NCBI GenBank assembly: GCA_014380825.1
Contig: JACMJD010000289.1
Location: 1-14,182 of the forward strand
DNA from: Phycisphaerae bacterium
GTDB lineage: Bacteria; Planctomycetota; Phycisphaerae; Tepidisphaerales; Tepidisphaeraceae
DNA: 14,182 nucleotides
Direction of reading: 5' to 3'
Both the position numbers and the translations under genes were made by a program. The stretch's first letter is position 1; each line of letters opens with the position of its first letter. Below are positions 2,425 to 14,182 of the stretch, one piece after another. Under the pieces are notes generated by a model that did no database searches, was not told the DNA's origin, and saw only the letters and a list, made by a program, of their open reading frames with translations.

Positions 2425-2988
2425 TTACCTCGGTGCAGTATTGCTTATCAACGATGGCGGCAATTCCTCGCCCGAGGCATGTCCTGTCTGGTTAGCGAAG
2501 CCCTCGCGGAGGCATCTGGCCATCAGTTCGGCTCGGCTGTTCACCACAAGCCTGCGATGAATCGCCTTGATGTGTTCGTGCACCGTGTGCCGACTCAGAC
2601 CCATCCGTTCCGCGATGGCCTTTTCGGACAGCCCGAACAGCACCAGTTTCAGGATCTGGTCCTGCCGCTCGGTCAACGCATAACCGATGCTGACACCATC
2701 GACATTGCCGGTACGTGGGAACTCGGCCAAGCGTTGACGCAGCGCGCTGGTCGAACGGATGACGTCCGCCATTGCCGAGAGGCGCTTGCCATCCGGCGGC
2801 AGCGGCGGCGCGATCGACGGATCGTTCAGCCGTCGGACTTCATCCGCCAGCAGCATCGCTGCCACTTCTAACCGCTGCGCCACCGGCACCAGCGACAAGA
2901 TGGCTTGCGTGGAGATGTTGCGGGCAGCGGAGGACGTTAGCTCTCGTTTGTGGACCACCAGCGCCCGCTCTGGATCACGTGTTGTCAT
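2425..2988 (-). CDS. LuxR/GerE-type helix-turn-helix regulator without receiver domain
   Basis: The 187-residue protein ends in a LuxR/GerE DNA-binding domain (about 103-163): L-T-E-R-Q-D-Q-I-L-K-L-V, then the recognition region G-L-S-R-H-T-V-H-E-H-I-K-A-I-H-R-R-L. The N-terminal ~100 residues are helical and unrecognised. They have neither the CheY-like receiver of NarL-type regulators nor a clear autoinducer domain. The start at 2988 has an AGGGGGG ribosome binding site four bases upstream, and its ATG overlaps the previous gene's TGA as ATGA, so translation is likely coupled. The frame stays open upstream to 3372, but that part lies over the preceding gene in another frame and is not protein-like. 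As the last gene of the sigma/kinase operon it is a candidate output of the kinase (inference); Ser/Thr residues in the N-terminal part could be phosphorylated. Confidence 0.88.
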   Translation of the reverse strand: MTTRDPERALVVHKRELTSSAARNISTQAILSLVPVAQRLEVAAMLLADEVRRLNDPSIAPPLPPDGKRLSAMADVIRSTSALRQRLAEFPRTGNVDGVSIGYALTERQDQILKLVLFGLSEKAIAERMGLSRHTVHEHIKAIHRRLVVNSRAELMARCLREGFANQTGHASGEELPPSLISNTAPR

Positions 2989-3518
2989 CGTCCCCCCTGC
3001 GAATCGATCCCACCCAATTCGCGGCTCGCCAGTTCCATCGCGTTGGCTGTGCCTGGGTCCATCCACGGTCGTGACGCGGCCCAGCCGGCGCGCCGCGCCA
3101 GTTCGGTGTCTGACCCGTTGATCAACTTCGTAGCACAACGAACTCGGGCCAACACGATGCAGACATTGAACAGCGAGAGCGCAACTTCGCGCGGCAGAAG
3201 TTCCTCCGGGTCTCCAAGCGCCCGTTCCATCCATCGCGCCACCATCGTCAGCAATTTCACGTCCGGCGCTGGTCGCGCGAACAGAGCCCGCAGGCTCGCG
3301 ATTGGCGGAACGGCGCTGCCGCACAGCGTCTGGCAGTGCAGCGCATGTACGAGGCTCAACTCCTCGATGCACTTGGACACGTTGGCTTCAAGCTGATGAT
3401 GCCAGACCTCGGCCAGCTCATCGCGCGACCACATCGATTGCGCGCCCGTATCTTGCGCCAAGTCAACGAGGCGCAAGTACCACGCCGAATCGTTTTGTTT
3501 GGTGAAGTCACACATCAT
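2985..3518 (-). CDS. Unknown helical protein in the sigma/kinase operon
   Basis: I cannot name this 177-residue protein. It is predicted to be almost all helical, without a signal peptide or membrane segment. It has a W-S-R-D-E-L-A-E-V-W block near the N-terminus (30-39), an L-F-A-R-P-A-P-D-V-K-L-L block (79-90) and an L-P-R-E-V-A-L-S-L-F-N block (108-118). It carries six cysteines (3, 50, 62, 66, 120, 128). From memory the L-P-R-E-V-A pattern recalls hypothetical proteins found next to Ser/Thr kinase genes in planctomycetes; I could not check this. The start is one of two adjacent ATGs (3518 or 3515), with AAGGTG just upstream in the 10-base gap from the previous stop. An in-frame extension to 3596 overlaps the upstream gene and is less likely. 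The stop overlaps the LuxR-type start. It may be an adaptor or regulator of its neighbours (inference). Confidence 0.85.
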   Translation of the reverse strand: MMCDFTKQNDSAWYLRLVDLAQDTGAQSMWSRDELAEVWHHQLEANVSKCIEELSLVHALHCQTLCGSAVPPIASLRALFARPAPDVKLLTMVARWMERALGDPEELLPREVALSLFNVCIVLARVRCATKLINGSDTELARRAGWAASRPWMDPGTANAMELASRELGGIDSQGGR

Positions 3519-3528
3519 GTATTCACCT

Positions 3529-4005
3529 TCAAATCGGGTCTTCCGGTTCCTCGGGAAACTCCGCCTCCAATGCCTGCTCGGCATCGGCCAGGTCATCAGC
3601 GGTCTCCGGCATGCTGCTGGCCACGTACGTCTGCGCGGCGCTGATGACCGCAGGGTTCGAGTGCTCTACGTCAATGAATTCGCCAGGACTGAACGATTGC
3701 TGGCCAGTGCCGTCCAGCCGAGACACGGAAGCGCTGCCCGACGACTCAAGCAGGACGAATCGACTCGTCGACGGCTTACCTGCGGCCGGGGCTGCGAAGT
3801 TCTGCAAAAGCAGCTTGCTGCCCGCAGCCGAACCGGAGGCATGGTTGTTCCTGACCTGAACGTTCCTTCCGGCAGTGATCACCCAACCCACGCTTGGAAA
3901 GACCATCAATGCACCGGCGCCCGTCCCCTCTGTGGTGATGTCGTCGCTTGCGACGCCGTTAAACGCTGTCCCATCGGGTCGAGTGATCGTCGCTGTATTT
4001 GCCAT
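3529..4005 (-). CDS. Unknown 158-residue protein with acidic tail, in the sigma/kinase operon
   Basis: I do not recognise this protein. Residues 1-125 are rich in Gly, Ala, Ser, Thr and Val and look like beta strands joined by loops (V-G-W-V-I-T-A-G-R-N-V-Q-V-R-N-N, 39-54; R-F-V-L-L-E-S-S-G-S-A-S-V, 82-94). The last 25 residues are strongly acidic (many Glu/Asp, ending E-E-P-E-D-P-I). There is no signal peptide or membrane helix, so a cytoplasmic location is likely. The start is supported by GAAGGAA about six bases upstream. It follows the CHASE2 kinase gene by 49 bases and precedes the 177-residue gene by 10, inside the same operon. The many Ser/Thr residues make it a plausible kinase substrate, but that is speculation from context. 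Confidence 0.78.
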   Translation of the reverse strand: MANTATITRPDGTAFNGVASDDITTEGTGAGALMVFPSVGWVITAGRNVQVRNNHASGSAAGSKLLLQNFAAPAAGKPSTSRFVLLESSGSASVSRLDGTGQQSFSPGEFIDVEHSNPAVISAAQTYVASSMPETADDLADAEQALEAEFPEEPEDPI

Positions 4006-4024
4006 GTGTATTCCTTCGCTCTCT

Positions 4025-4042
4025 CGTCAGCCAGCGCTAACG
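4025..4042 (-). promoter_or_regulatory. intergenic hairpin between kinase and 158-residue gene
   Basis: On the minus strand CGTTAGC-GCTG-GGCTGACG-type pairing gives a 7-base-pair stem (one G-T wobble) with a 4-base loop in the 49-base gap. No T-run follows, so it is not a classical terminator. It could act as an RNA processing or stability element that lowers or protects the downstream message. Confidence 0.25.
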
Positions 4043-4054
4043 ATTGCTTCGAGG

Positions 4055-6466
4055 TCAGATGGTTGATTCCCGTGCGCGATAGATACGCAGCACGAGTTCG
4101 CCGGCCACGACGACGCACAGCACCGGCGCCAGCGGTAAGTAAATGAAGCCCCCTACGCGGAAGGCCAACAACGTGGATAAGACGATTGCAATGGAAACGA
4201 CGAGGTACGCCGTCACTCTCGTCCAGGACCGATCGCGCAACCAAATCGCGGCGATCGCACCAGCGACCGCTGCACTGACCACGATCGGAATCTCGCCCGT
4301 GATCGACCACGACGATGCGGAGATGTAGCGCGGTCGCTTCAATACCTCGCCACTCAGCAGGCGCTCGATGGCAACTGCCTGCATGATCGCCCCCGGCATC
4401 GATCGGCCGTCCGGATGTGCGAACGGACCATCAGCACCTTGGCGGAAGTCACCAATCAAGAGGACGTTGCCGTCGAGGCGATCGCGCAAGTCAGCGTCGC
4501 TCATCGAGAAGACGTCTCGGTAGTCGAGCGAGCTGCGCTCCAGGTCATGGTCATCCGGCACCTCGATTACGAACTCCGCGAACGGCGTACCCTTGCGCAG
4601 GCCCAACTCGAGGTTCTCGTCGGGCATTGGTGCAACGCTGGTCACGTCCACTCGACGCGTGCCTCCCTCGGCGTACCGTAGTTGAATGGCATCCGGCAAC
4701 CACTCCATCGCCGGCATCTGCTCCGGCCGCCAACAACGCGACGCAGTCATTAACGCCAGTGAGGGATAGATCCCACCGTTGGGCAGCGTCGTCGCTAGGT
4801 CTGCCGTCCACGGTCCGTCCGCGCGCATCAGTCCGTTCGTGCCGCCGGCCGAGACGAGCGGACGCAGTGCAGGCGCGAGGATCGGTTCGAGCGGGCTATC
4901 GCTCGTCCCCGCGTACGCGCCAACGATGATCGGCACGCCGCTCGACGCACGGATGCCATCAGCGAACTCGAGATCCCACTTGCTTTCCGGCGGAAAGCGG
5001 ATGTCGAAGGTCACGGCACGCGGTCGAACGCCGGCTTGTGCCAGCCGCTTCAGGAACTGACCGTGCGCGCGGCGCGCGAATCGAGGGTGCAGCGCGTCTT
5101 CCGGACCATCGGACGGCTTTGTGCCTGCAATCGCGGCGATATCCGTGCCGTCGCGCAGCTTGACGATGACCACGTGTGAAAGCGGCGCCGACGGGACGTG
5201 ATGCACGTTCTGCGTTAGCAACAGCTCGAATGCGAAGTTCAGACCCCTCGTTGCGATTCTCGTGCTGAGGGTTCCGCAAAAGATGGAAGCGACAATTAGC
5301 GATACCGCCACCGCGAGCAATCGATGACGTGCGATCCAACGCTCGCCTTTGCGCCTTGCCCGGTAGATGCGCCGGCGATCCGGTGAGACCGGCTCCCCGC
5401 GTAATAGAAGTTGAAGATCATCCTCCAGTGCACGGACCGTCTGATACCGGCTATCTGCGTCCTTAACCAACGCCTTGTCCAAGATCTTCTCGACGTCACC
5501 GCGCAGCGATCGATTGTGTTTGCGCGGTGTGGTCGGGTCGGATTCCAAGATCGATTTGGCGGCCGTGACCGACGACGTGCGATCCACCTTGTATGGCAAG
5601 TGACCGCAAAGCAGCTCGTACAGGATCACGCCCAACGCGTAGACATCGCTGCGCTGGTCGAGCTCAAAGTCATGGCCACTCACCTGCTCGGGGCTCATGT
5701 ACTGCGGCGTGCCGAAGATCACGCTTGCATCTGACCAGCTAGTGCCGGTCGACTCGTCCAGTTGCATCGAGCGGGCGACGCCGAAGTCGATCACCTTCAC
5801 CTGGCCCTCGCCGTTCACCAGGATGTTCGATGGCTTCAGATCGCAGTGGATCACGCCTTGTTCGTGCGCGTGCCGAACGCCGGCGCAGACTTGCAGAAAC
5901 AGTTCGATCTTCGCCTTGGTGCTCAAGCGCTTGGACTGGGCGAACACAGTGATGGAGCTGGCCCCCCTGACCAGCTCCATCACGCAAAACGGCACATGCA
6001 GGACCCCATGATGATGCACTCCCGCGTCGTACAACTGGGCAACGTGCGGGTGATTCAGCGTTGCCAGCAGACGGGTTTCGCGCAGGAAGCGCCCTTCCGC
6101 GGCGGCGGAGGAGGACTGCTTGGACTTCATGATCTTCACGGCGACCGTGCGGGCCGGTTCATTCTGTTTCGCTTCGTAGACCGTGCCCATCGCGCCCTCG
6201 CCTAGCTGGCGGAGCAACAGGTATCGGTCGAACGGAACATTGATCTTGTTATCGCCCACCTGCGACAGAAGTGGAACGTGCTGCACGTCGAAGTCGCCAT
6301 CTGCTGGTACAGGGGTCACGGGAGGTTCGCTGCCGTCGGAATGCATGCCCATGCAGAACACTTTAACGTCGAAGGGCGCAGCGACGATGCCATCGCTCGT
6401 CGTCCCATTCGACACCGCGATGACCTTGCGCTGCGGGCGCGCAGATTTGCTCTTCAGTCCCACCAT
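4055..6466 (-). CDS. Membrane Ser/Thr protein kinase with CHASE2 sensor domain
   Basis: About 803 residues (numbered from the ATG at 6466). The Hanks-type kinase domain spans about 82-350: glycine loop L-G-E-G-A-M-G-T-V-Y (88-97), catalytic Lys in V-A-V-K (111), H-C-D-L-K-P-S-N (207-214), D-F-G (227-229) and S-P-E-Q (258-261). All catalytic residues are present, but HRD reads HCD, so it is a non-RD kinase. One membrane helix follows (about 382-398), then a CHASE2-like extracytoplasmic sensor (about 412-722), then three helices (725-743, 752-770, 774-792), the usual CHASE2 arrangement. It probably senses an envelope or periplasmic signal and phosphorylates cytoplasmic Ser/Thr targets. The start is uncertain: the frame opens with TTG at 6535, directly after the sigma gene's TGA, but ATG 6466 is more plausible. 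ATGs near 6352 also exist, and none has a strong ribosome binding site. Confidence 0.93.
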   Translation of the reverse strand: MVGLKSKSARPQRKVIAVSNGTTSDGIVAAPFDVKVFCMGMHSDGSEPPVTPVPADGDFDVQHVPLLSQVGDNKINVPFDRYLLLRQLGEGAMGTVYEAKQNEPARTVAVKIMKSKQSSSAAAEGRFLRETRLLATLNHPHVAQLYDAGVHHHGVLHVPFCVMELVRGASSITVFAQSKRLSTKAKIELFLQVCAGVRHAHEQGVIHCDLKPSNILVNGEGQVKVIDFGVARSMQLDESTGTSWSDASVIFGTPQYMSPEQVSGHDFELDQRSDVYALGVILYELLCGHLPYKVDRTSSVTAAKSILESDPTTPRKHNRSLRGDVEKILDKALVKDADSRYQTVRALEDDLQLLLRGEPVSPDRRRIYRARRKGERWIARHRLLAVAVSLIVASIFCGTLSTRIATRGLNFAFELLLTQNVHHVPSAPLSHVVIVKLRDGTDIAAIAGTKPSDGPEDALHPRFARRAHGQFLKRLAQAGVRPRAVTFDIRFPPESKWDLEFADGIRASSGVPIIVGAYAGTSDSPLEPILAPALRPLVSAGGTNGLMRADGPWTADLATTLPNGGIYPSLALMTASRCWRPEQMPAMEWLPDAIQLRYAEGGTRRVDVTSVAPMPDENLELGLRKGTPFAEFVIEVPDDHDLERSSLDYRDVFSMSDADLRDRLDGNVLLIGDFRQGADGPFAHPDGRSMPGAIMQAVAIERLLSGEVLKRPRYISASSWSITGEIPIVVSAAVAGAIAAIWLRDRSWTRVTAYLVVSIAIVLSTLLAFRVGGFIYLPLAPVLCVVVAGELVLRIYRARESTI

Positions 6467-6535
6467 TGACAACCCTGGTCTGCGGACAGAGGTGCTTCCC
6501 ACCCTTACTCCGCAGGCGACCAGGTTTTCGAGCAA

Positions 6536-7252
6536 TCAATTTTGAAAAATATTTCGCAGCTCCGCGAGGGCAACGCCGAGGTCCTGGTGGGTTGCGCCAA
6601 ACTCGATCAGTACGTCATTGAGCTTGCGGCGGAAGATGCGCTTGGCGGTGTTCAACGCGATCGCCGCCTGGCTGGGCTTCTCGAAGCCGAACTCGTTGGT
6701 CAGCACCTGGTAGCTCCGGGCGGCTTCGCCCTGCTCCAGCAATCGTCGGCTGAAGACCTCCCAAGCTGCCGCGCGATTGGTCGCGCACAGCCGCTCCTTC
6801 GTCAGTCGTAGCGCCTCGGCAATCGCGTGCTCGGCCCAATGTCGCTCGAACAGTACCGCTGGATCACTGGTCGCCGGTGCGGCGATCTCTACCGGGGATT
6901 GCTCATCCGTGCCGTGACCGTTGGGACCACGAGTTCGTCGGCGACGGAATTGATCAATCCCGTAATCAGCCAGTGCCCGGCTGAGCAATGCGCGGAACTT
7001 GCCGTGGTCCTGATCCGCCCGGCTGAGCAGCGCGCTCTGCAGGAGCTTCGACGTGATGAACCCCTGCAGCCAGTCTTCCGCCTCATCATCGTTCAGGCGG
7101 AACCGCTGTCGGATGAACCGGCGCATCGGCGGCATGTAACGTTTGAGCAGCTCATTCAAATCGAGTCGTCGGGCCGCCGGTTCCTCGTCACCGGCCACGC
7201 GCCGGATCAGTGACCAGTCGGTCATCGGGAATGATGAGGTGTCCTCGCTCAT
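6536..7252 (-). CDS. ECF-like RNA polymerase sigma factor paired with the kinase
   Basis: This 238-residue protein fits the planctomycete ECF-like sigma factors. Residues 11-21 have T-D-W-S-L-I-R-R-V-A-G. A sigma-2-like region (about 33-105) has F-R-L-N-D-D-E-A-E-D-W-L-Q-G-F (51-65), followed by F-R-A-L-L-S-R-A-L and an Arg-rich F-R-R-R-R-T-R. A sigma-4-like helix-turn-helix (about 160-215) ends in T-A-K-R-I-F-R-R-K-L. Residues 215-238 are a short extension. It directs RNA polymerase to a specific promoter set. No anti-sigma gene is present; the next gene is a membrane Ser/Thr kinase, and this family is known to be linked with such kinases in planctomycetes, so control by phosphorylation is likely (inference). 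I chose ATG 7252 because the open frame upstream to 7390 reads as low-quality sequence. The ribosome binding site is weak. The stop is adjacent to the kinase frame. Confidence 0.88.
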   Translation of the reverse strand: MSEDTSSFPMTDWSLIRRVAGDEEPAARRLDLNELLKRYMPPMRRFIRQRFRLNDDEAEDWLQGFITSKLLQSALLSRADQDHGKFRALLSRALADYGIDQFRRRRTRGPNGHGTDEQSPVEIAAPATSDPAVLFERHWAEHAIAEALRLTKERLCATNRAAAWEVFSRRLLEQGEAARSYQVLTNEFGFEKPSQAAIALNTAKRIFRRKLNDVLIEFGATHQDLGVALAELRNIFQN

Positions 7253-8427: not shown

Positions 8428-9228
8428 ATGAAGTTGAAGCAGGATGAGGTCGTCGGCGGGCGCTGGCGACTCACTTCCCAGTGTCGAAACCAGGGCGCTA
8501 ACGGAATAGTTTGGTTTGCGGAAGACACCACTGCCGCCGGGAGCGGCGAGTACGCGATAAAATTTCTTAAGAGCGAGAGCTTTTTTGGTACCCCAAAGCA
8601 TGAAAGATTTCTCGCAGAGATGCGATTCGGCAGGTTGCACGCATCGAATCCTGGAATCCTGCCCGTGATCGATTCCGATGAAGGTAGTCTAGAGAATCCG
8701 CGATCTTGGTTCGTGATGCCGCGCGCGGTTCCACTTTGGGAGCGATTTCCACCAAGACGAAGCACGACCGACAGGCTGTTCAATCTCTCGTGCGTTTGCA
8801 CGCATCTGCTCGAAGTCGCGCGGACTCTGGAGCAGTTTCATTCGCAGATGGTTTGGCATCGTGACATCAAGCCCGACAACATTTTTGTGTGGCAGGACAA
8901 GACAGTCTTAGGTGATTGGGGCTCGGCTGACTTTCCAGAGAAGCCATCGCTTACCGCTGTGGGCGATCGACGTGGCGCCGAAGGTTATCGGGCCCCGGAG
9001 CTTTCCGCTGCGGCAGCAGTCACTGACTTTGGACCGGCAGATGTTTGGGCGTTTGCGAAAACGCTCTTTGTTCTCGGAAGTGGACATAGTTGGCCGATTG
9101 AGGGTTCGCCGGCGAGGTGGGCAGGCGCCAGATTGAGCACCTACCGAACCATGAGCCGCGTGCGATGCTTCTCGATTATCTGCTCGAACAAGCGACGCAA
9201 GAAGACCCTGCGAAAAGGGTCGCGATAA
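8428..9228 (+). CDS. Soluble Ser/Thr protein kinase, N-terminal part (frameshifted)
   Basis: The frame encodes 266 residues, of which the first 231 are kinase. The glycine loop is N-Q-G-A-N-G-I-V-W (21-29), the catalytic Lys is in Y-A-I-K (45), then H-R-D-I-K-P-D-N (144-151). The magnesium-binding motif reads D-W-G (163-165) instead of D-F-G. G-A-E-G-Y-R-A-P-E-L (183-191) and D-V-W-A-F-A (205-210) follow. The catalytic residues are intact, so a full-length product could be active. After W231 the reading frame turns into a Lys/Arg-rich 35-residue tail and stops, while the true C-lobe continues in the -1 frame (next entry). It has no membrane helix, so it is cytosolic. The DNA looks less GC-rich than its neighbours (A/T-rich codons around 8560-8620), which may mean horizontal transfer. 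No ribosome binding site precedes the ATG. Confidence 0.85.
   Translation: MKLKQDEVVGGRWRLTSQCRNQGANGIVWFAEDTTAAGSGEYAIKFLKSESFFGTPKHERFLAEMRFGRLHASNPGILPVIDSDEGSLENPRSWFVMPRAVPLWERFPPRRSTTDRLFNLSCVCTHLLEVARTLEQFHSQMVWHRDIKPDNIFVWQDKTVLGDWGSADFPEKPSLTAVGDRRGAEGYRAPELSAAAAVTDFGPADVWAFAKTLFVLGSGHSWPIEGSPARWAGARLSTYRTMSRVRCFSIICSNKRRKKTLRKGSR
9115..9122 (+). other. frameshift site splitting the soluble kinase gene
   Basis: Upstream the kinase reads in the frame of 8428; downstream it reads in the -1 frame. Adding one base to the G-run in GGTGGGC would give a continuous ...P-A-R-W-G-R-R-Q-I-E-H... C-lobe of about 457 residues in total. No slippery heptamer is present, so a single-base deletion or a homopolymer sequencing error is the simplest explanation. 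Confidence 0.75.
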
Positions 9229-9800
9229 CCATCGTGCGCGAGGAGCTGGACACTTGGCTACAGCCATGCAATCCGGCGTTACCGCCCCGAGCTGACGTGC
9301 CGCTGCATCGGGTCCGGTCGCTGTTGTTGGATCCGAACTTTGCGCCAAACGCGATTGAGAATGCGGAGAATGAATTGAAGCTCCTCGCGGATCGCGCGAT
9401 CATGCCGGTCATAAATCGACTCACAGACCAAGCCAAGGGCGCGGGCCTTGAACTCATTCCAAGCGGCGGGGATTTTTGGACGCAATGCGGCCTAGATAAA
9501 TCGGCGATTGGTCCGCTCAAGGCAAAAGCCACTTTTGGCGTACGATGGAAAGCGAAGAATTGTCATGTTGCGGCCGGCGTGTCTGCGAGAGTGACAATCA
9601 CGAATGAACTTCACATGGTCAGTGCGTTCGGGTTTAACGGCGAGGTAGCGGGCACGCTGTCGCAAGAAGCGCCCGCGGTACGATTTGGCTCGATACGTGC
9701 CGAGCAAGAAGCTAAGGTGGCCGCTGCTTGGTTGGAGCACAACTTTCCCGCCGCCATGGACAGACTCGCCGACATTCTGCAAAGCCGACTCATTTCGTGA
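9117..9800 (+). CDS. C-lobe end and unknown C-terminal domain of the frameshifted kinase
   Basis: This frame continues the kinase. Residues about 15-45 (A-M-L-L-D-Y-L-L-E-Q-A-T-Q-E-D-P-A-K-R-V) match the last part of a protein kinase C-lobe, with the conserved Arg before the end of the domain. The GTG at 9117 is only where the frame is first needed, not a likely natural start. After that come about 180 residues I cannot assign: a helical segment (N-A-E-N-E-L-K-L-L-A-D-R-A), a beta-looking middle (F-G-V-R-W-K-A-K-N-C-H-V-A-A-G-V) and a C-terminal helix (W-L-E-H-N-F-P-A-A-M-D-R-L-A-D-I-L). There is no membrane helix. This domain may sense a ligand or bind the substrate. The gene ends four bases from the end of a minus-strand short frame. 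Confidence 0.8.
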   Translation: MGRRQIEHLPNHEPRAMLLDYLLEQATQEDPAKRVAITIVREELDTWLQPCNPALPPRADVPLHRVRSLLLDPNFAPNAIENAENELKLLADRAIMPVINRLTDQAKGAGLELIPSGGDFWTQCGLDKSAIGPLKAKATFGVRWKAKNCHVAAGVSARVTITNELHMVSAFGFNGEVAGTLSQEAPAVRFGSIRAEQEAKVAAAWLEHNFPAAMDRLADILQSRLIS

Positions 9801-10095: not shown

Positions 10096-11670
10096 TTAGC
10101 GCGACAATCGCAGCGTCGTCACGCTGTACGCCGGCAGGGTAGACGAAAGGTGATTCGGTTTCTTCAGCTCGGTTTGACCCAATGAATTGATCTTCGCCGC
10201 GGCGCTCGTGAGCTGGAATGTTTCGACCTTGATGAGCGGTGTCGCGTGCTTGATCGAGAGTTCGCCGGTCACGTCTGTGTCGGATCGATTGATGAGCACG
10301 ATCGTCATGACCGATGGATCTTTTTCATCGACGCTCGCGTATACGGATGCCGTGGCGATGTCGTCGCTCGTAGCCGCGATCGATTGATCGCCGAAGTGTC
10401 CGCCCTTGCCGTCGTAGTTCTGATACATGTCGAACGCGTTTTCGATGAAATCGGTCTTGTCGCTCTCGGGCCACCAGCAAGCGGCGAAGATTCCCTGCTG
10501 GCCGAAGATGCCGAGTACGTCCGCCTGCGCGATTGCGCCGGAGATGTGATCGGCGCCGCCGTAGTTGTATTCGGTGATGGCGATCTTCGTGCCCGGATAG
10601 AACTGCTCGACGTCATTCTTCAGGCGTGGGATCATCGCGATCGGTTTGCCTTGTGTTGAGTCCTTCGTGATCCAGCTCGTCTCGACGTAAGTCGGATCCC
10701 ACAGCGATCGCGGCGACTGCACGCGCGCCGCGACCACGTCGGGCGTTGTTTCCTTTCCGGTGACGCGGACGTCGTCGCCTCGCGCTTCGGGATACCAGTG
10801 CACGTCGAGCACATCGAGCAGACGCAGCCCGGCGCTCGCTTCGGCCTTCTTCATTTCGGCGAGGAAGAACTGATGAAAGTCGCGCCCGTTTTCATCGGGT
10901 GCATTTTGCAACGTGCGATATCCGTTCCAGCCATAATTCACGGCGCCGAACACCATCGCATCGGGCTTTACACCTTTGATTCCGCCGGCAAAATCAATCG
11001 TCTTCTGCGCGAGTTCGGCGTAGGTCAGTTTCTCGGGATGAATTCGCGCGTGCGTGTGCGACCACAGATCCGGTTCGTTATCCAGCGAATAGAAAATCAC
11101 TTGATTCGGATCGTGCTTCGATTTCTCCACCCAGTTGACGAACTCATCCTGATACACAAACGCGTCCGCAAGATCCGGTTTGAGCGACAGCGCGCTATTT
11201 TTCTTCGGCAGCGACTTTCGGAACCGCTTGTTCAGATAATCCGGCGTCTGGTTCACGTCGCCCTCGGGACCCTTGTCCGCCGACACGTAGCCGCCGATTG
11301 GGACGGTGACGACCAGCGCCTGTTTGTTCTTCGCCGCCTGTTCGAGCACAAGCCGTACGGGTTCGCCGGGCACGTCGGACTTGGACATGAAATCATCGCT
11401 CTGATGATGCCAATCCGAGCCGGCATTGGAGGCGTTGTTCTCCCAGTTGTACGCCGTCCAACGATTGCCGCCGATTCGCGTCAGCGGGCGCGAGCTGACA
11501 GTCTTGGCGTGCTGGTTCATGCCGTAGATGTAAGGTGAGATCGGTCGAACGTCGGCCGAGCTGTCGATCGCGAAACGCACGACCGTCGGCTTTGTAGCTG
11601 GATCGGCGGCCAGGGCGTTCCTGCTCGCGAGAATCATCACAATCGCCGCTAATGTGATCATCGTTTTCAT
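10096..11670 (-). CDS. GH44 endoglucanase/xyloglucanase-type glycoside hydrolase, secreted
   Basis: The 524-residue protein begins with a Sec signal peptide (M-K-T-M-I-T-L-A-A-I-V-M-I-L-A-S..., cleavage likely after A-L-A at 19-21). The mature part matches glycoside hydrolase family 44: the R-I-G-G-N-R-W-T-A-Y-N-W-E-N-N block (65-79), S-L-D-N-E-P-D-L-W (195-203) with the likely acid/base Glu199, L-D-V-H-W-Y-P-E (288-295), and I-T-E-Y-N-Y-G (365-371) with the likely nucleophile Glu367. GH44 enzymes cut beta-1,4-glucan or xyloglucan internally with retention. The C-terminal ~90 residues form a beta-sandwich-like domain, as usual in the family. The start was chosen at ATG 11670; the TTG at 11706 adds residues before the signal and is less likely. 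No strong ribosome binding site is visible. It is divergent from the GH9 gene, so the two are probably co-regulated. Confidence 0.92.
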   Translation of the reverse strand: MKTMITLAAIVMILASRNALAADPATKPTVVRFAIDSSADVRPISPYIYGMNQHAKTVSSRPLTRIGGNRWTAYNWENNASNAGSDWHHQSDDFMSKSDVPGEPVRLVLEQAAKNKQALVVTVPIGGYVSADKGPEGDVNQTPDYLNKRFRKSLPKKNSALSLKPDLADAFVYQDEFVNWVEKSKHDPNQVIFYSLDNEPDLWSHTHARIHPEKLTYAELAQKTIDFAGGIKGVKPDAMVFGAVNYGWNGYRTLQNAPDENGRDFHQFFLAEMKKAEASAGLRLLDVLDVHWYPEARGDDVRVTGKETTPDVVAARVQSPRSLWDPTYVETSWITKDSTQGKPIAMIPRLKNDVEQFYPGTKIAITEYNYGGADHISGAIAQADVLGIFGQQGIFAACWWPESDKTDFIENAFDMYQNYDGKGGHFGDQSIAATSDDIATASVYASVDEKDPSVMTIVLINRSDTDVTGELSIKHATPLIKVETFQLTSAAAKINSLGQTELKKPNHLSSTLPAYSVTTLRLSR

Positions 11671-11753
11671 ATATTTCGCAGTAAGCGTAACCCACTTCGG
11701 GTACAATCCGCAATCGGTTGCTTAGGGGCGAAATTCGCAGTGTGGAGGTTGGG
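11671..11753. promoter_or_regulatory. divergent promoter region between GH44 and GH9 genes
   Basis: These 83 bases serve both cellulase genes. TTCGCAGT occurs twice in direct orientation (11675-11682 and 11734-11741). The second copy overlaps a perfect palindrome, GCGAA-A-TTCGC (11728-11738), and the first is preceded by ATTTCGC-like sequence, as if it were a half-site. TACAAT at 11702-11707 could be a plus-strand -10 but has no clear -35. The repeats are candidates for an operator that controls both genes. Confidence 0.4.
11744..11749 (+). promoter_or_regulatory. ribosome binding site of the GH9 gene
   Basis: GGAGGT lies a few bases before the ATG at 11754 and fixes that start, so the protein truly begins with M-S-R-F-E-Q-L-E-T-R and has no longer signal peptide upstream. 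Confidence 0.7.
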
Positions 11754-14182
11754 ATGTCTCGATTCGAGCAGCTCGAAACGCGAACGCTTTTCAGCGTCGG
11801 AACGCCCAGCGATCTGATCATCGTCGACCAGTTCGGCTGGCGCGCCAATGCTCCGCGCAAAGTCGCGATCTTCGCCGATCCGGTGAACGGCCAAAACTCG
11901 GCGGGAAGTTACTCGCTGCCAGTGAACGCGCCGTTTCAGGTACTGCGTGTCAGCGATGACAGTGTCGCGCACAGCGGCACGGTCACGCAGTGGAAGGCCG
12001 GGCAGACAGATGCGGTTTCGGGCGATCGAGTTTGGTACGCTGACTTTTCTAGTCTCACCGCGCCGGGCGATTACTACATTTACGATTCAACGAACAACCG
12101 CCGCTCGTTTCCGTTCAAGCTCGATAATTTGGTGTTCGATTCGGTGCTGAAGACGAGTCTGCGCACGTTTTTCTATCAGCGCGCCGGCACCGCGATCGAC
12201 GCCGCGCACGGAATCAACTGGACGCACGCGGCCGGTCACGTCGGACCGAATCAGGATCACGCGGCGCGCTTGTGGACCGGTTCCAATCAAGGTCAGCCGC
12301 GCGATCTGTGGGGCGGATGGTACGACGCAGGCGATTACAACAAATACGTTCCGTTCACCACGAGCGTGATGTGGAACTTGCTCAACGCGTACGAATGGAA
12401 CCCGGCCGCGTACGGGGACAACACGAACATTCCCGAAAGCGGCAACGGCGTCCCGGACACGCTGGATGAAATCAAGTGGGAGCTTGATTGGCTGCTGCGG
12501 ATGCAGAACGTGAACGGATCGGTGCTGAACCGCAACGCGAACGCGACGTATAACGCTGGTAATTACGATCCATCCACCGACACGCAGCCGCGCTACTACA
12601 CGCAGGCGACGACGTGGGCGACATCGAGCTTCATCGCGGCGATCGCGCACGGCGCCCGCGTGTTCGAGAACTTCGACGCGCAGTACCCGGGCTATTCGAC
12701 AACCCTGCGCATGGCGGCGGAAAATGCGTGGAACTATCTCGCCGCGACACCGAACATGACGCCCGCCAGCGGCACCGACGGTGGCGGCGGCGGTGGAAGC
12801 AACGGCGTGAGCGGTGGCTTGGCCGCAGCGGAGGCGAGCAGCGATGCGAACGGCGATCGACGGCTTCGCGTTTTTGCCGCCGCGGAGTTGTACAAGACGA
12901 CGGGCAGTGCAACGTACAAGTCGTATTTCGAAGCGAACTACAAGAACGCCAACACCAGCGACAACGGATTTCATCCTCTCACCGATGCCACGCCACGCTT
13001 CGATTCAAGCGTGGCGGCCGATCTGAATCGCGCGTTCGTCACGTACGCAACCACGCCCGGCGCGAGCGCGACGATCGTCAGCGAAATCAAGAACGCGCTG
13101 CGCAACAACATCACGCAGAGCTGGCTGGCGGTTGGCGAATACACCAATCAGACCGACCCGTATCGCTCGTTCATGTGGGACGGCCATTACACGTGGGGTT
13201 CGAATTCGCTCAAGAGCGAATGGGCGAACATCCTGATGTACGCGGTTCGTCTGAACGTCGGCACGCAGTTGGAGCGCGATCGCGCGAAGGAAGCCGCCGA
13301 GGAATATCTGCACTATTTCCACGGGCGAAATCCGCTGTCGATGGTTTACCTGACGAACACCGGATCGATCGGCGCCGAGCGCAGCGCGATGCAGCCGTAT
13401 CACAGTTGGTTCGGCGACGGCTCACCGTTGTATGACGGGCCCAGTTCCACGTTCGGGCCGCCGCCGGGATATCTGGTTGGCGGGCCGAATCAATTCTTCA
13501 GCGTCAGCACGATCTCGCCACCGCGCGGCGAGCCGCCGATGAAGGCGTTTAAGGATTGGAACACCAGCTTCCCGGAAAACTCCTGGGAGATCACCGAGCC
13601 GGCGATTTACTACCAGGCCGCGTACAGCCTGCTCGCTTCTCATTTCACAGGCGCCCAGTTCGCGAGCGTGTCGAACAACAAGCTCACGATCACCGGCACG
13701 TTCGAGAACGACACGATTTCCCTCGGCGCCAGCGGCACCGATTACACCGTGACGATGAATGGTCAGGCACTATCGTTCGCGAAGGCGTCGGTGAATCAGA
13801 TCGAAGTGATGGCGCTGTCCGGCGATGATGCGCTGAGCATCAACGCCGCGATCACGGCCCCGCTGACGTTCACCGGCGGCGCGGGAATCGACACAGTGAA
13901 CGTCACCGGCGCTGGCAGCGTCACGTTCACTACGTCGCAGACGATCGACGCGCTGTCGATCTCCAACAGCGGCGTGGCGACGCTTGCGACGGGCGGCGGG
14001 AAGGTGCTGGTCGTCAGCAGTCTTGTCCTTGGCGCGAGCGCGAAGTTGGGTCTGACCGACAACAACCTGATCGTGAACTACACAAGCGGTTCGCCGCGGG
14101 CAACGATCCAATCCGCGATCAACACCGCCCGCGCCGGCGGCGCGTGGAATGGATTTGGTTTGACGAGTCTCGCCGCGCAGTC
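11754..14182 (+). CDS. GH9 endoglucanase with CelD_N-like domain and C-terminal beta region (partial, 3' end outside)
   Basis: The frame is open for 809 codons to the right edge. It begins M-S-R-F-E-Q-L-E-T-R-T-L-F-S, the planctomycete N-terminal motif found on extracellular proteins in place of a normal signal. Residues about 18-110 look like the Ig-like cellulase N-domain. The GH9 catalytic domain follows (about 125-635): G-G-W-Y-D-A-G-D-Y-N-K-Y-V carries Asp191 and Asp194, the expected catalytic base pair, and S-W-E-I-T-E-P-A-I-Y-Y-Q-A carries Glu615, the likely catalytic acid; the family's Asn after it is Gln here. GH9 enzymes cleave cellulose or related beta-glucans by inversion. After about 640 come Gly/Ser/Thr-rich beta segments. 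Near the edge L-G-L-T-D-N-N-L-I-V-N-Y is followed by G-G-A-W-N-G-F-G, a tail pattern I know from planctomycete surface proteins. A Gly-rich linker sits at about 344-349. Confidence 0.92.
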   Translation, partial: MSRFEQLETRTLFSVGTPSDLIIVDQFGWRANAPRKVAIFADPVNGQNSAGSYSLPVNAPFQVLRVSDDSVAHSGTVTQWKAGQTDAVSGDRVWYADFSSLTAPGDYYIYDSTNNRRSFPFKLDNLVFDSVLKTSLRTFFYQRAGTAIDAAHGINWTHAAGHVGPNQDHAARLWTGSNQGQPRDLWGGWYDAGDYNKYVPFTTSVMWNLLNAYEWNPAAYGDNTNIPESGNGVPDTLDEIKWELDWLLRMQNVNGSVLNRNANATYNAGNYDPSTDTQPRYYTQATTWATSSFIAAIAHGARVFENFDAQYPGYSTTLRMAAENAWNYLAATPNMTPASGTDGGGGGGSNGVSGGLAAAEASSDANGDRRLRVFAAAELYKTTGSATYKSYFEANYKNANTSDNGFHPLTDATPRFDSSVAADLNRAFVTYATTPGASATIVSEIKNALRNNITQSWLAVGEYTNQTDPYRSFMWDGHYTWGSNSLKSEWANILMYAVRLNVGTQLERDRAKEAAEEYLHYFHGRNPLSMVYLTNTGSIGAERSAMQPYHSWFGDGSPLYDGPSSTFGPPPGYLVGGPNQFFSVSTISPPRGEPPMKAFKDWNTSFPENSWEITEPAIYYQAAYSLLASHFTGAQFASVSNNKLTITGTFENDTISLGASGTDYTVTMNGQALSFAKASVNQIEVMALSGDDALSINAAITAPLTFTGGAGIDTVNVTGAGSVTFTTSQTIDALSISNSGVATLATGGGKVLVVSSLVLGASAKLGLTDNNLIVNYTSGSPRATIQSAINTARAGGAWNGFGLTSLAAQ

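What the first reader, a model, noticed from the sequence alone, without database searches (positions are those of the whole stretch)
2425..7252. Five-gene operon linking an ECF-like sigma factor, a CHASE2 membrane kinase, two unknown proteins and a LuxR-type regulator
All five genes lie on the minus strand with gaps of a few to 49 bases and one ATGA overlap. Sequence shows a sensor kinase (CHASE2 outside, kinase inside) encoded with two different DNA-binding outputs and no anti-sigma factor. ECF/Ser-Thr kinase pairs are known in planctomycetes; the extra LuxR-type protein without a receiver and the two unassigned proteins may be the missing signal-relay parts. I infer that the kinase phosphorylates one or more of them.
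Basis: partly seen in the sequence, partly recalled or inferred. Interest (0 to 1): 0.75.

Follow-up and report, generated by a model that had tools for sequence, protein, structure and literature searches.

The report
Membrane-kinase and gene-switch regulator gene cluster
Five neighbouring bacterial genes probably form one signalling unit in which a membrane kinase with an outside sensor is made together with a gene-switch protein (sigma factor), a second DNA-binding protein and two proteins of unknown kind; it looks like an unusual version of a known type, but whether other bacteria keep the set together could not be tested here.

Summary
The five-gene arrangement is real: four frames score as coding and the kinase has clear domains. 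Pkinase plus CHASE2 in one membrane protein, and a GerE/LuxR helix-turn-helix without receiver, are firm. The sigma factor is weaker: one ECF-superfamily match over region 2, below cut-off, and no region 4 match. The two middle proteins match no family. The sigma/kinase pair fits the known ECF/Ser-Thr-kinase kind; all 7 plasmid records compared have a kinase beside the ECF (three by motif only). It is a variant: 8 of 8 comparison ECFs carry TLxxT and lack an acidic DxxDxxQ motif, whereas this sigma factor has EAEDWLQ. The published ECF43 threonine switch therefore probably does not apply, although MAFFT uses another register that sets S68 opposite their threonine. No anti-sigma factor is recognisable, but either unassigned protein could be one. 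Conserved gene order, the finding's main test, could not be examined: protein searches timed out, two genome scans found nothing, and no genome handle was available. Phosphorylation targets are inference. Verdict: new variant of a known kind, moderate interest.

The parts
6536..7252 (-). ECF-like sigma factor, 238 aa
   Evidence: TIGR02937 21.4 bits over residues 32-149 (below cut-off 42.9); coding score 0.290 bits per codon
6806..7159 (-). region of the sigma factor matched by the ECF-superfamily model (region 2 and linker)
   Evidence: residues 32-149; coordinates computed from the gene start
7064..7084 (-). EAEDWLQ, residues 57-63: acidic DxxDxxQ-type motif of sigma region 2.2
   Evidence: motif scan; meaning of the motif from passages; register differs in MAFFT
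4055..6502 (-). membrane Ser/Thr kinase with CHASE2; 815 aa from GTG 6502 or 803 aa from ATG 6466
5420..6217 (-). Pkinase domain (residues 84-349 of the 803-aa form)
   Evidence: PF00069, 181.4 bits; aligned to PknB at E 1.3e-50 with Lys, HxD and DFG kept
4256..5203 (-). CHASE2 domain (residues 422-737), predicted outside the membrane
   Evidence: PF05226, 52.9 bits
4088..5320 (-). span holding one hydrophobic segment before CHASE2 (5264-5320), one at its end (4238-4294) and two after it (4160-4216, 4088-4144)
   Evidence: hydropathy
4006..4054 (-). 49-base gap with a stable stem-loop and no U-run
   Evidence: -17.0 kcal/mol, z -3.09, 2 of 200 shuffles fold as well
3529..4005 (-). unassigned protein, 158 aa, no hydrophobic segment, net charge -13, acidic C-terminal tail
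   Evidence: no match in Pfam, NCBIfam, PHROGs, PADLOC
2985..3518 (-). unassigned protein, 177 aa, six Cys, H58xxxC62xxxC66
   Evidence: no match in Pfam, NCBIfam, PHROGs, PADLOC
2425..2988 (-). LuxR-type regulator, 187 aa, unassigned N-terminal part
   Evidence: no Pfam match for residues 1-103
2521..2679 (-). GerE helix-turn-helix, residues 104-156
   Evidence: PF00196, 49.3 bits

Best explanation
A kinase-centred signalling operon, a variant of the known ECF/Ser-Thr-kinase pair. The CHASE2 domain senses a signal outside the membrane and changes the activity of the cytoplasmic kinase (architecture shown; sensing inferred). The kinase sets the activity of the co-encoded sigma factor and probably of the LuxR-type regulator (inferred). 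Because the sigma factor already has an acidic RNA-polymerase-contact motif, control is probably not the ECF43 threonine charge switch. It acts either on Ser/Thr in the sigma linker (T115, S119, T128, S129) or through a co-encoded partner, with the 177-aa and 158-aa proteins as candidates (inferred).
For: Five co-directional frames with short gaps and an ATGA overlap, four of them scored as coding. Pkinase plus CHASE2 with a consistent four-segment topology. Catalytic Lys, HxD and DFG align with PknB. All 7 plasmid records holding a relative of the Paludisphaera ECF (8 of the 11 matching places were fetched) have a kinase gene or kinase motif beside it; it follows the ECF in 6 of 7 (L004, L005 and L007 by motif only). 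EAEDWLQ in this sigma factor against TLxxT in those 8 of 8 ECFs. A review passage says STPK-linked ECFs outside ECF43 show a DAED or similar motif and may work differently (PMC8999054). STPK phosphorylation of LuxR/NarL-type regulators is published for VraR and DosR (PMC4601284 passages; PMC12919924 abstract and outline).
Against: The sigma match is below its curated cut-off and region 4 was not detected. MAFFT, at 13-25% identity, puts a 5-residue gap at the motif and pairs S68, not the acidic residues, with the comparison Thr, in all four runs. The comparison ECFs are of a different family (TIGR02999/PF07638 in the two scanned). No relative of either unknown protein or of the sigma factor was found in anything searched, so the association may be peculiar to this contig. 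A stable stem-loop lies between the kinase and the third gene. For VraR, the passages report one study in which Stk1 did not phosphorylate it.
Confidence: 0.45

Rival explanations
1. Two adjacent units: a sigma/kinase pair, and an unrelated three-gene unit (two unknowns and the LuxR-type regulator) that is merely downstream.
For: The 49 bases before the third gene carry a stable stem-loop (z -3.09). The last three genes are the tightest set (10-base gap, 4-base overlap). In three annotated comparison records (L001, L003, L006) no LuxR-type gene is listed directly after the kinase, and no relative of either unknown protein was found in the plasmid collection.
Against: No U-run follows the stem-loop and no promoter-like match lies in the cluster on this strand. 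49 bases is within ordinary operon spacing (general knowledge).
Confidence: 0.3
2. Direct activation of the sigma factor by phosphorylation, as in ECF43 (EcfP/PknT, EcfK/PknS), with the other three genes as accessories or targets.
For: Adjacency of kinase and sigma factor. PknS also phosphorylates EcfK in its linker (PMC13147305 passages), and this linker has T115, S119, T128, S129. In the MAFFT register S68 pairs with the comparison Thr, and one review passage names a serine as the switch residue in ECF59 and the original ECF60 (PMC8103513).
Against: EAEDWLQ matches the acidic motif that ECF43 members typically lack.
Confidence: 0.2
3. The 177-aa protein is a soluble anti-sigma factor released on phosphorylation.
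For: It is co-encoded, is mainly helical in a low-confidence model (mean pLDDT 44.7), and has H58xxxC62xxxC66.
Against: The zinc anti-sigma motif HxxxCxxC (recalled) is not met, and no anti-sigma family matches. It has one moderately hydrophobic stretch (residues 112-130), so solubility is not certain.
Confidence: 0.1

Closest known systems
ECF/Ser-Thr kinase pairs of TIGR02999/PF07638 type, e.g. Paludisphaera plasmid L001 and Eleftheria L002
   Same: ECF gene followed by a Ser/Thr kinase; kinase regions 37% identical over 361 positions to L001's
   Different: This sigma factor does not match PF07638 or TIGR02999, has EAEDWLQ instead of TLxxT, and its kinase has CHASE2, seen in 0 of 5 comparison kinases scanned at E up to 1e-5 (the kinases of L004, L005, L007 and the second pair of L003 were not scanned)
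ECF43 (EcfP/PknT, EcfK/PknS)
   Same: Sigma factor encoded beside a Ser/Thr kinase
   Different: ECF43 typically has an uncharged motif with a phosphorylated Thr; here the motif is acidic (passages)
ECF groups ECF59, 61, 62, 217, 283, proposed to be kinase-controlled, with planctomycete examples (table seen in PMC8999054)
   Same: STPK neighbour; DAED or similar motif reported for groups other than ECF43
   Different: Group membership could not be tested; no group models are held
Eleftheria terrae L002: ECF, two kinases, LuxR regulator
   Same: ECF, kinase and LuxR-type genes in a row on one strand
   Different: That LuxR has an autoinducer-binding domain (PF03472) and lies 150 bases past the second kinase; only its HTH resembles this one (18 of 46 residues)
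EACC2-caspase/CHASE2 systems with ECF sigma factor and DUF1822 (PMC8195603 passages)
   Same: CHASE2 is one of the variable sensor domains, and ECF genes are reported in many of these neighbourhoods
   Different: No caspase or DUF1822 match here

Membership tests
ECF sigma factor (group 4) | sigma region 2 | tested here: inconclusive
   TIGR02937 E 1.6e-4, 21.4 bits against cut-off 42.9, residues 32-149; DxxDxxQ-type motif at 57-63
ECF sigma factor (group 4) | sigma region 4 | tested here: inconclusive
   No Pfam match for the last 89 residues at E up to 10; by recall the stretch resembles region 4 of a family starting FPxTxWSL
ECF43-type phospho-activated ECF | uncharged region 2.2 with a phospho-accepting Thr | tested here: not met
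   EAEDWLQ by motif; 8 of 8 comparison ECFs have TLxxT. In the MAFFT register S68 stands opposite that Thr
ECF43-type phospho-activated ECF | adjacent Ser/Thr kinase | tested here: met
PF07638/TIGR02999 ECF | match to the family model | tested here: not met
   0 Pfam families; TIGR02999 not listed
CHASE2 Ser/Thr kinase | Pkinase and CHASE2 in one membrane protein with catalytic residues | tested here: met
LuxR/NarL-type regulator | GerE helix-turn-helix | tested here: met
   49.3 bits, cut-off 23.5
LuxR/NarL response regulator | receiver domain | tested here: not met
   no receiver match
zinc anti-sigma factor (177-aa protein) | HxxxCxxC motif (recalled) or family match | tested here: not met
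   HxxxCxxxC instead (by eye; Cys positions); no family match
conserved five-gene operon | same gene order in related genomes | not testable with these tools
   time-outs 15, 16, 18, 21, 30, cap 39; scans without a relative 13, 27; no genome handle 29, 32, 33
operon | one transcript | not testable with these tools
   only spacing, pattern scans and folding

The most novel reading that the evidence does not exclude
A one-kinase, two-output system: a CHASE2 membrane kinase drives both a sigma factor that can already bind RNA polymerase and a receiver-less LuxR regulator through two new dedicated signal-relay proteins, giving a mechanism for kinase-linked ECFs that keep the acidic RNA-polymerase motif.
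Probability: 0.25. Interest if true: 0.65.

Novelty: new variant of a known kind. Interest (0 to 1): 0.42.

Why it matters
How kinase-linked ECF sigma factors outside ECF43 are switched is described as needing further work in a 2022 review (PMC8999054, passages). This cluster offers a sigma factor with the acidic motif, a sensor kinase and a short list of candidate relay proteins, so the question could be tested on five genes.

Tried and rejected
Genome scans with the sigma factor (21 pattern matches) and the kinase (110) gave no relative. Viral-contig scans with all five proteins and two typed patterns gave none. Plasmid tblastn with the sigma factor (twice), both unknowns and the CHASE2 part found no match, nor did phage tblastn with the 158-aa protein. 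Plasmid tblastn with the whole kinase hit 952 records, 0 of them over 80% of its length; with the LuxR-type protein it hit 575 records, 3 of them over at least 80%, at 30-34% identity; those were not followed up. The empty searches are weak evidence of absence: the scans need exact short peptides and the plasmid set probably holds little from environmental phyla.

Structure models from single sequences were too poor to use: mean pLDDT 44.7 for the 177-aa protein (50) and 43.7 for the 158-aa protein (63); no fold search was run on them. An FHA-domain reading of the 158-aa protein was considered and dropped for lack of any family match (11, 66). A phage-defence reading was considered because the kinase domain matches PADLOC's PD-T4-6 models (best 270.1 bits, residues 77-359); it also matches PknB and other kinase models, below their cut-offs where one is given (12), so this says no more than 'Ser/Thr kinase'. 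A split-sigma reading (region 2 in the first gene, region-4-like HTH in the last; TIGR02937 matches residues 32-149 of one and 105-147 of the other) was considered; GerE domains resemble region 4 in general, so it was not kept. The weak xylanase match of the 158-aa protein (E 0.48), the designed-protein matches of the sigma factor (best E 0.068) and the formate dehydrogenase match of the 177-aa protein (E 0.79) were taken as chance. Promoter-like and terminator-like matches (53) were not used: 1 promoter, on the other strand and outside the cluster, against 1.3 expected; 8 terminators against 4.0 (sd 2.5). Five of those 8 are on the minus strand inside the sigma or kinase coding sequence; the one at the end of the sigma gene folds no better than shuffles (z -0.44), and the other four were not folded.

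By recall only, the sigma factor resembles a family beginning FPxTxWSL found in Acidobacteria, Verrucomicrobia and Planctomycetes, and the 177-aa protein resembles small planctomycete hypothetical proteins. No call confirmed either.

Full report
Observation. Five minus-strand reading frames lie at 2425-7252. A codon-usage score trained on five genes of the window, one of them the kinase of this cluster, is highest in the annotated frame for the other four genes, with no stops (sigma 0.290, 158-aa 0.197, 177-aa 0.237, LuxR-type 0.200 bits per codon). The kinase was not scored against other frames; its domains carry it. ORF length alone would show little: 375 of 500 random sequences had an ORF of at least 158 aa. 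Gaps are 49 and 10 bases, then a 4-base ATGA overlap. The kinase start is uncertain: GTG 6502 has the better ribosome-binding-like sequence by eye and leaves a 33-base gap, ATG 6466 leaves 69.

Kinase. Residues 84-349 match Pkinase (181.4 bits) and 422-737 match CHASE2 (52.9 bits). The closest solved structures by sequence are PknB kinase domains (best E 1.3e-50), and the alignment keeps the ATP-binding Lys, the catalytic HxD (here HCD) and DFG. Four hydrophobic segments, at 383-401, 725-743, 751-769 and 775-793, with basic stretches on the predicted inner side, fit kinase inside and CHASE2 outside.

Sigma factor. The only family match is TIGR02937 at E 1.6e-4, 21.4 bits against a cut-off of 42.9, residues 32-149. 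Pfam gives none, even at E up to 10, and the last 89 residues match nothing there. I treat it as ECF-like, with region 2 probable and region 4 unproven. Residues 57-63 read EAEDWLQ, of the DxxDxxQ type described as the RNA-polymerase contact (PMC13147305, passages).

Comparison with known pairs. A kinase search of the plasmid collection led to a Paludisphaera ECF/kinase pair. That ECF, used as query, matched 11 places in 7 records. One place from each record was fetched, and a second lay in the L003 stretch, so 8 of 11 places were examined. An annotated kinase follows the ECF in L001, L002, L003 (two pairs) and L006. L007 has a kinase-motif ORF after it and L004 a kinase motif after it; in L005 the kinase motif found lies before it (these three stretches carry no annotation). 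All eight ECFs have TLxxT and none has the DxxDxxQ type. Those scanned are of a different family from the window's protein. MAFFT at 13-25% identity, and three further settings on region 2 alone, set a 5-residue gap there, so that S68 of the window's protein falls opposite their Thr. The motif reading is therefore likely but not settled. Of five comparison kinases scanned, none has CHASE2 at E up to 1e-5.

LuxR-type gene. GerE 49.3 bits at residues 104-156; no receiver, and residues 1-103 match nothing in Pfam. In one of the 7 records, Eleftheria terrae L002, a LuxR-type gene follows the ECF and two kinases on the same strand, 150 bases on, but it has an autoinducer-binding domain and resembles this protein only in the HTH. 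The three stretches without annotation were not examined for LuxR genes. Ser/Thr kinases are reported to phosphorylate such regulators: VraR, though one study cited there found no transfer, and DosR (PMC4601284, passages; PMC12919924, abstract and outline).

Unknown proteins. Neither the 158-aa nor the 177-aa protein matches Pfam, NCBIfam, PHROGs or PADLOC, and solved-structure matches are at chance level. Both single-sequence models are poor. The 177-aa protein has H58xxxC62xxxC66, one residue off the zinc anti-sigma spacing as I recall it. The statement 'no anti-sigma factor' must be weakened to 'none recognisable'.

Transcription. No promoter-like match lies in the cluster on this strand. 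Five terminator-like matches do, all inside the sigma or kinase coding sequence; the total of 8 in the region compares with 4.0 (sd 2.5) in shuffles. The 49-base gap before the third gene holds a stem-loop that only 2 of 200 shuffles match; it has no U-run, so it may be a processing or stability element or nothing. One transcript is likely but not shown.

What could not be tested. The finding's own test, conserved gene order, was out of reach: five protein searches failed or timed out and the cap followed, two genome scans found no relative, and the genome search needs a handle that I could not obtain. The window's organism is unknown.

Literature. Ten searches in the held open-access library listed, by title and start of abstract, no paper describing this gene set; three of the lists were cut (43: 10 of 32; 85: 10 of 122; 94: 8 of 71), and three papers on planctomycete signalling and sigma-factor phosphorylation were not held. 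One review passage says kinase-linked ECFs outside ECF43 show a DAED or similar motif and may act differently (PMC8999054); another says the motif is replaced in STPK-regulated ECFs, naming ECF59 as well (PMC8103513). The two disagree, and a sigma factor with the motif beside a kinase bears on that.

Verdict. A real gene cluster, best read as a variant of the ECF/Ser-Thr-kinase pair with a CHASE2 sensor and three extra genes. Mechanism beyond the pair is inference.

Noticed in passing
8428-9228 and 9117-9800, + strand: A second Ser/Thr kinase: the Pkinase match (53.2 bits) ends at residue 220 of the first frame, and by eye a kinase-like continuation appears in another frame near 9110-9230 (no Pfam kinase match there), suggesting a frameshift or sequence error; codon scores are low in both frames.
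   Followed up: partly
217-1086 and 1155-2012, + strand: A bacterial Ku gene (TIGR02772, 240 bits) followed by a MerR-HTH protein with tetratricopeptide repeats.
   Followed up: no
10096-11706 (-) and 11718-14180 (+): Divergent glycoside hydrolases: GH44 (192 bits) and a GH9 cellulase cut by the window end; the GH9 N-terminus FEQLETRTLFS recalls the planctomycete LEPR-type motif (recall; NCBIfam did not report it).
   Followed up: no
2130-2402, + strand: A 90-aa protein without Pfam or NCBIfam match, convergent with the cluster, ending 22 bases from the LuxR gene's stop codon.
   Followed up: no
4006-4054, - strand: Stable stem-loop between the kinase and the 158-aa gene, -17.0 kcal/mol, z -3.09.
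   Followed up: partly
L002 5432-11261: Eleftheria terrae plasmid: ECF gene overlapping a kinase gene, then a second kinase and an autoinducer-type LuxR gene, all on one strand.
   Followed up: partly
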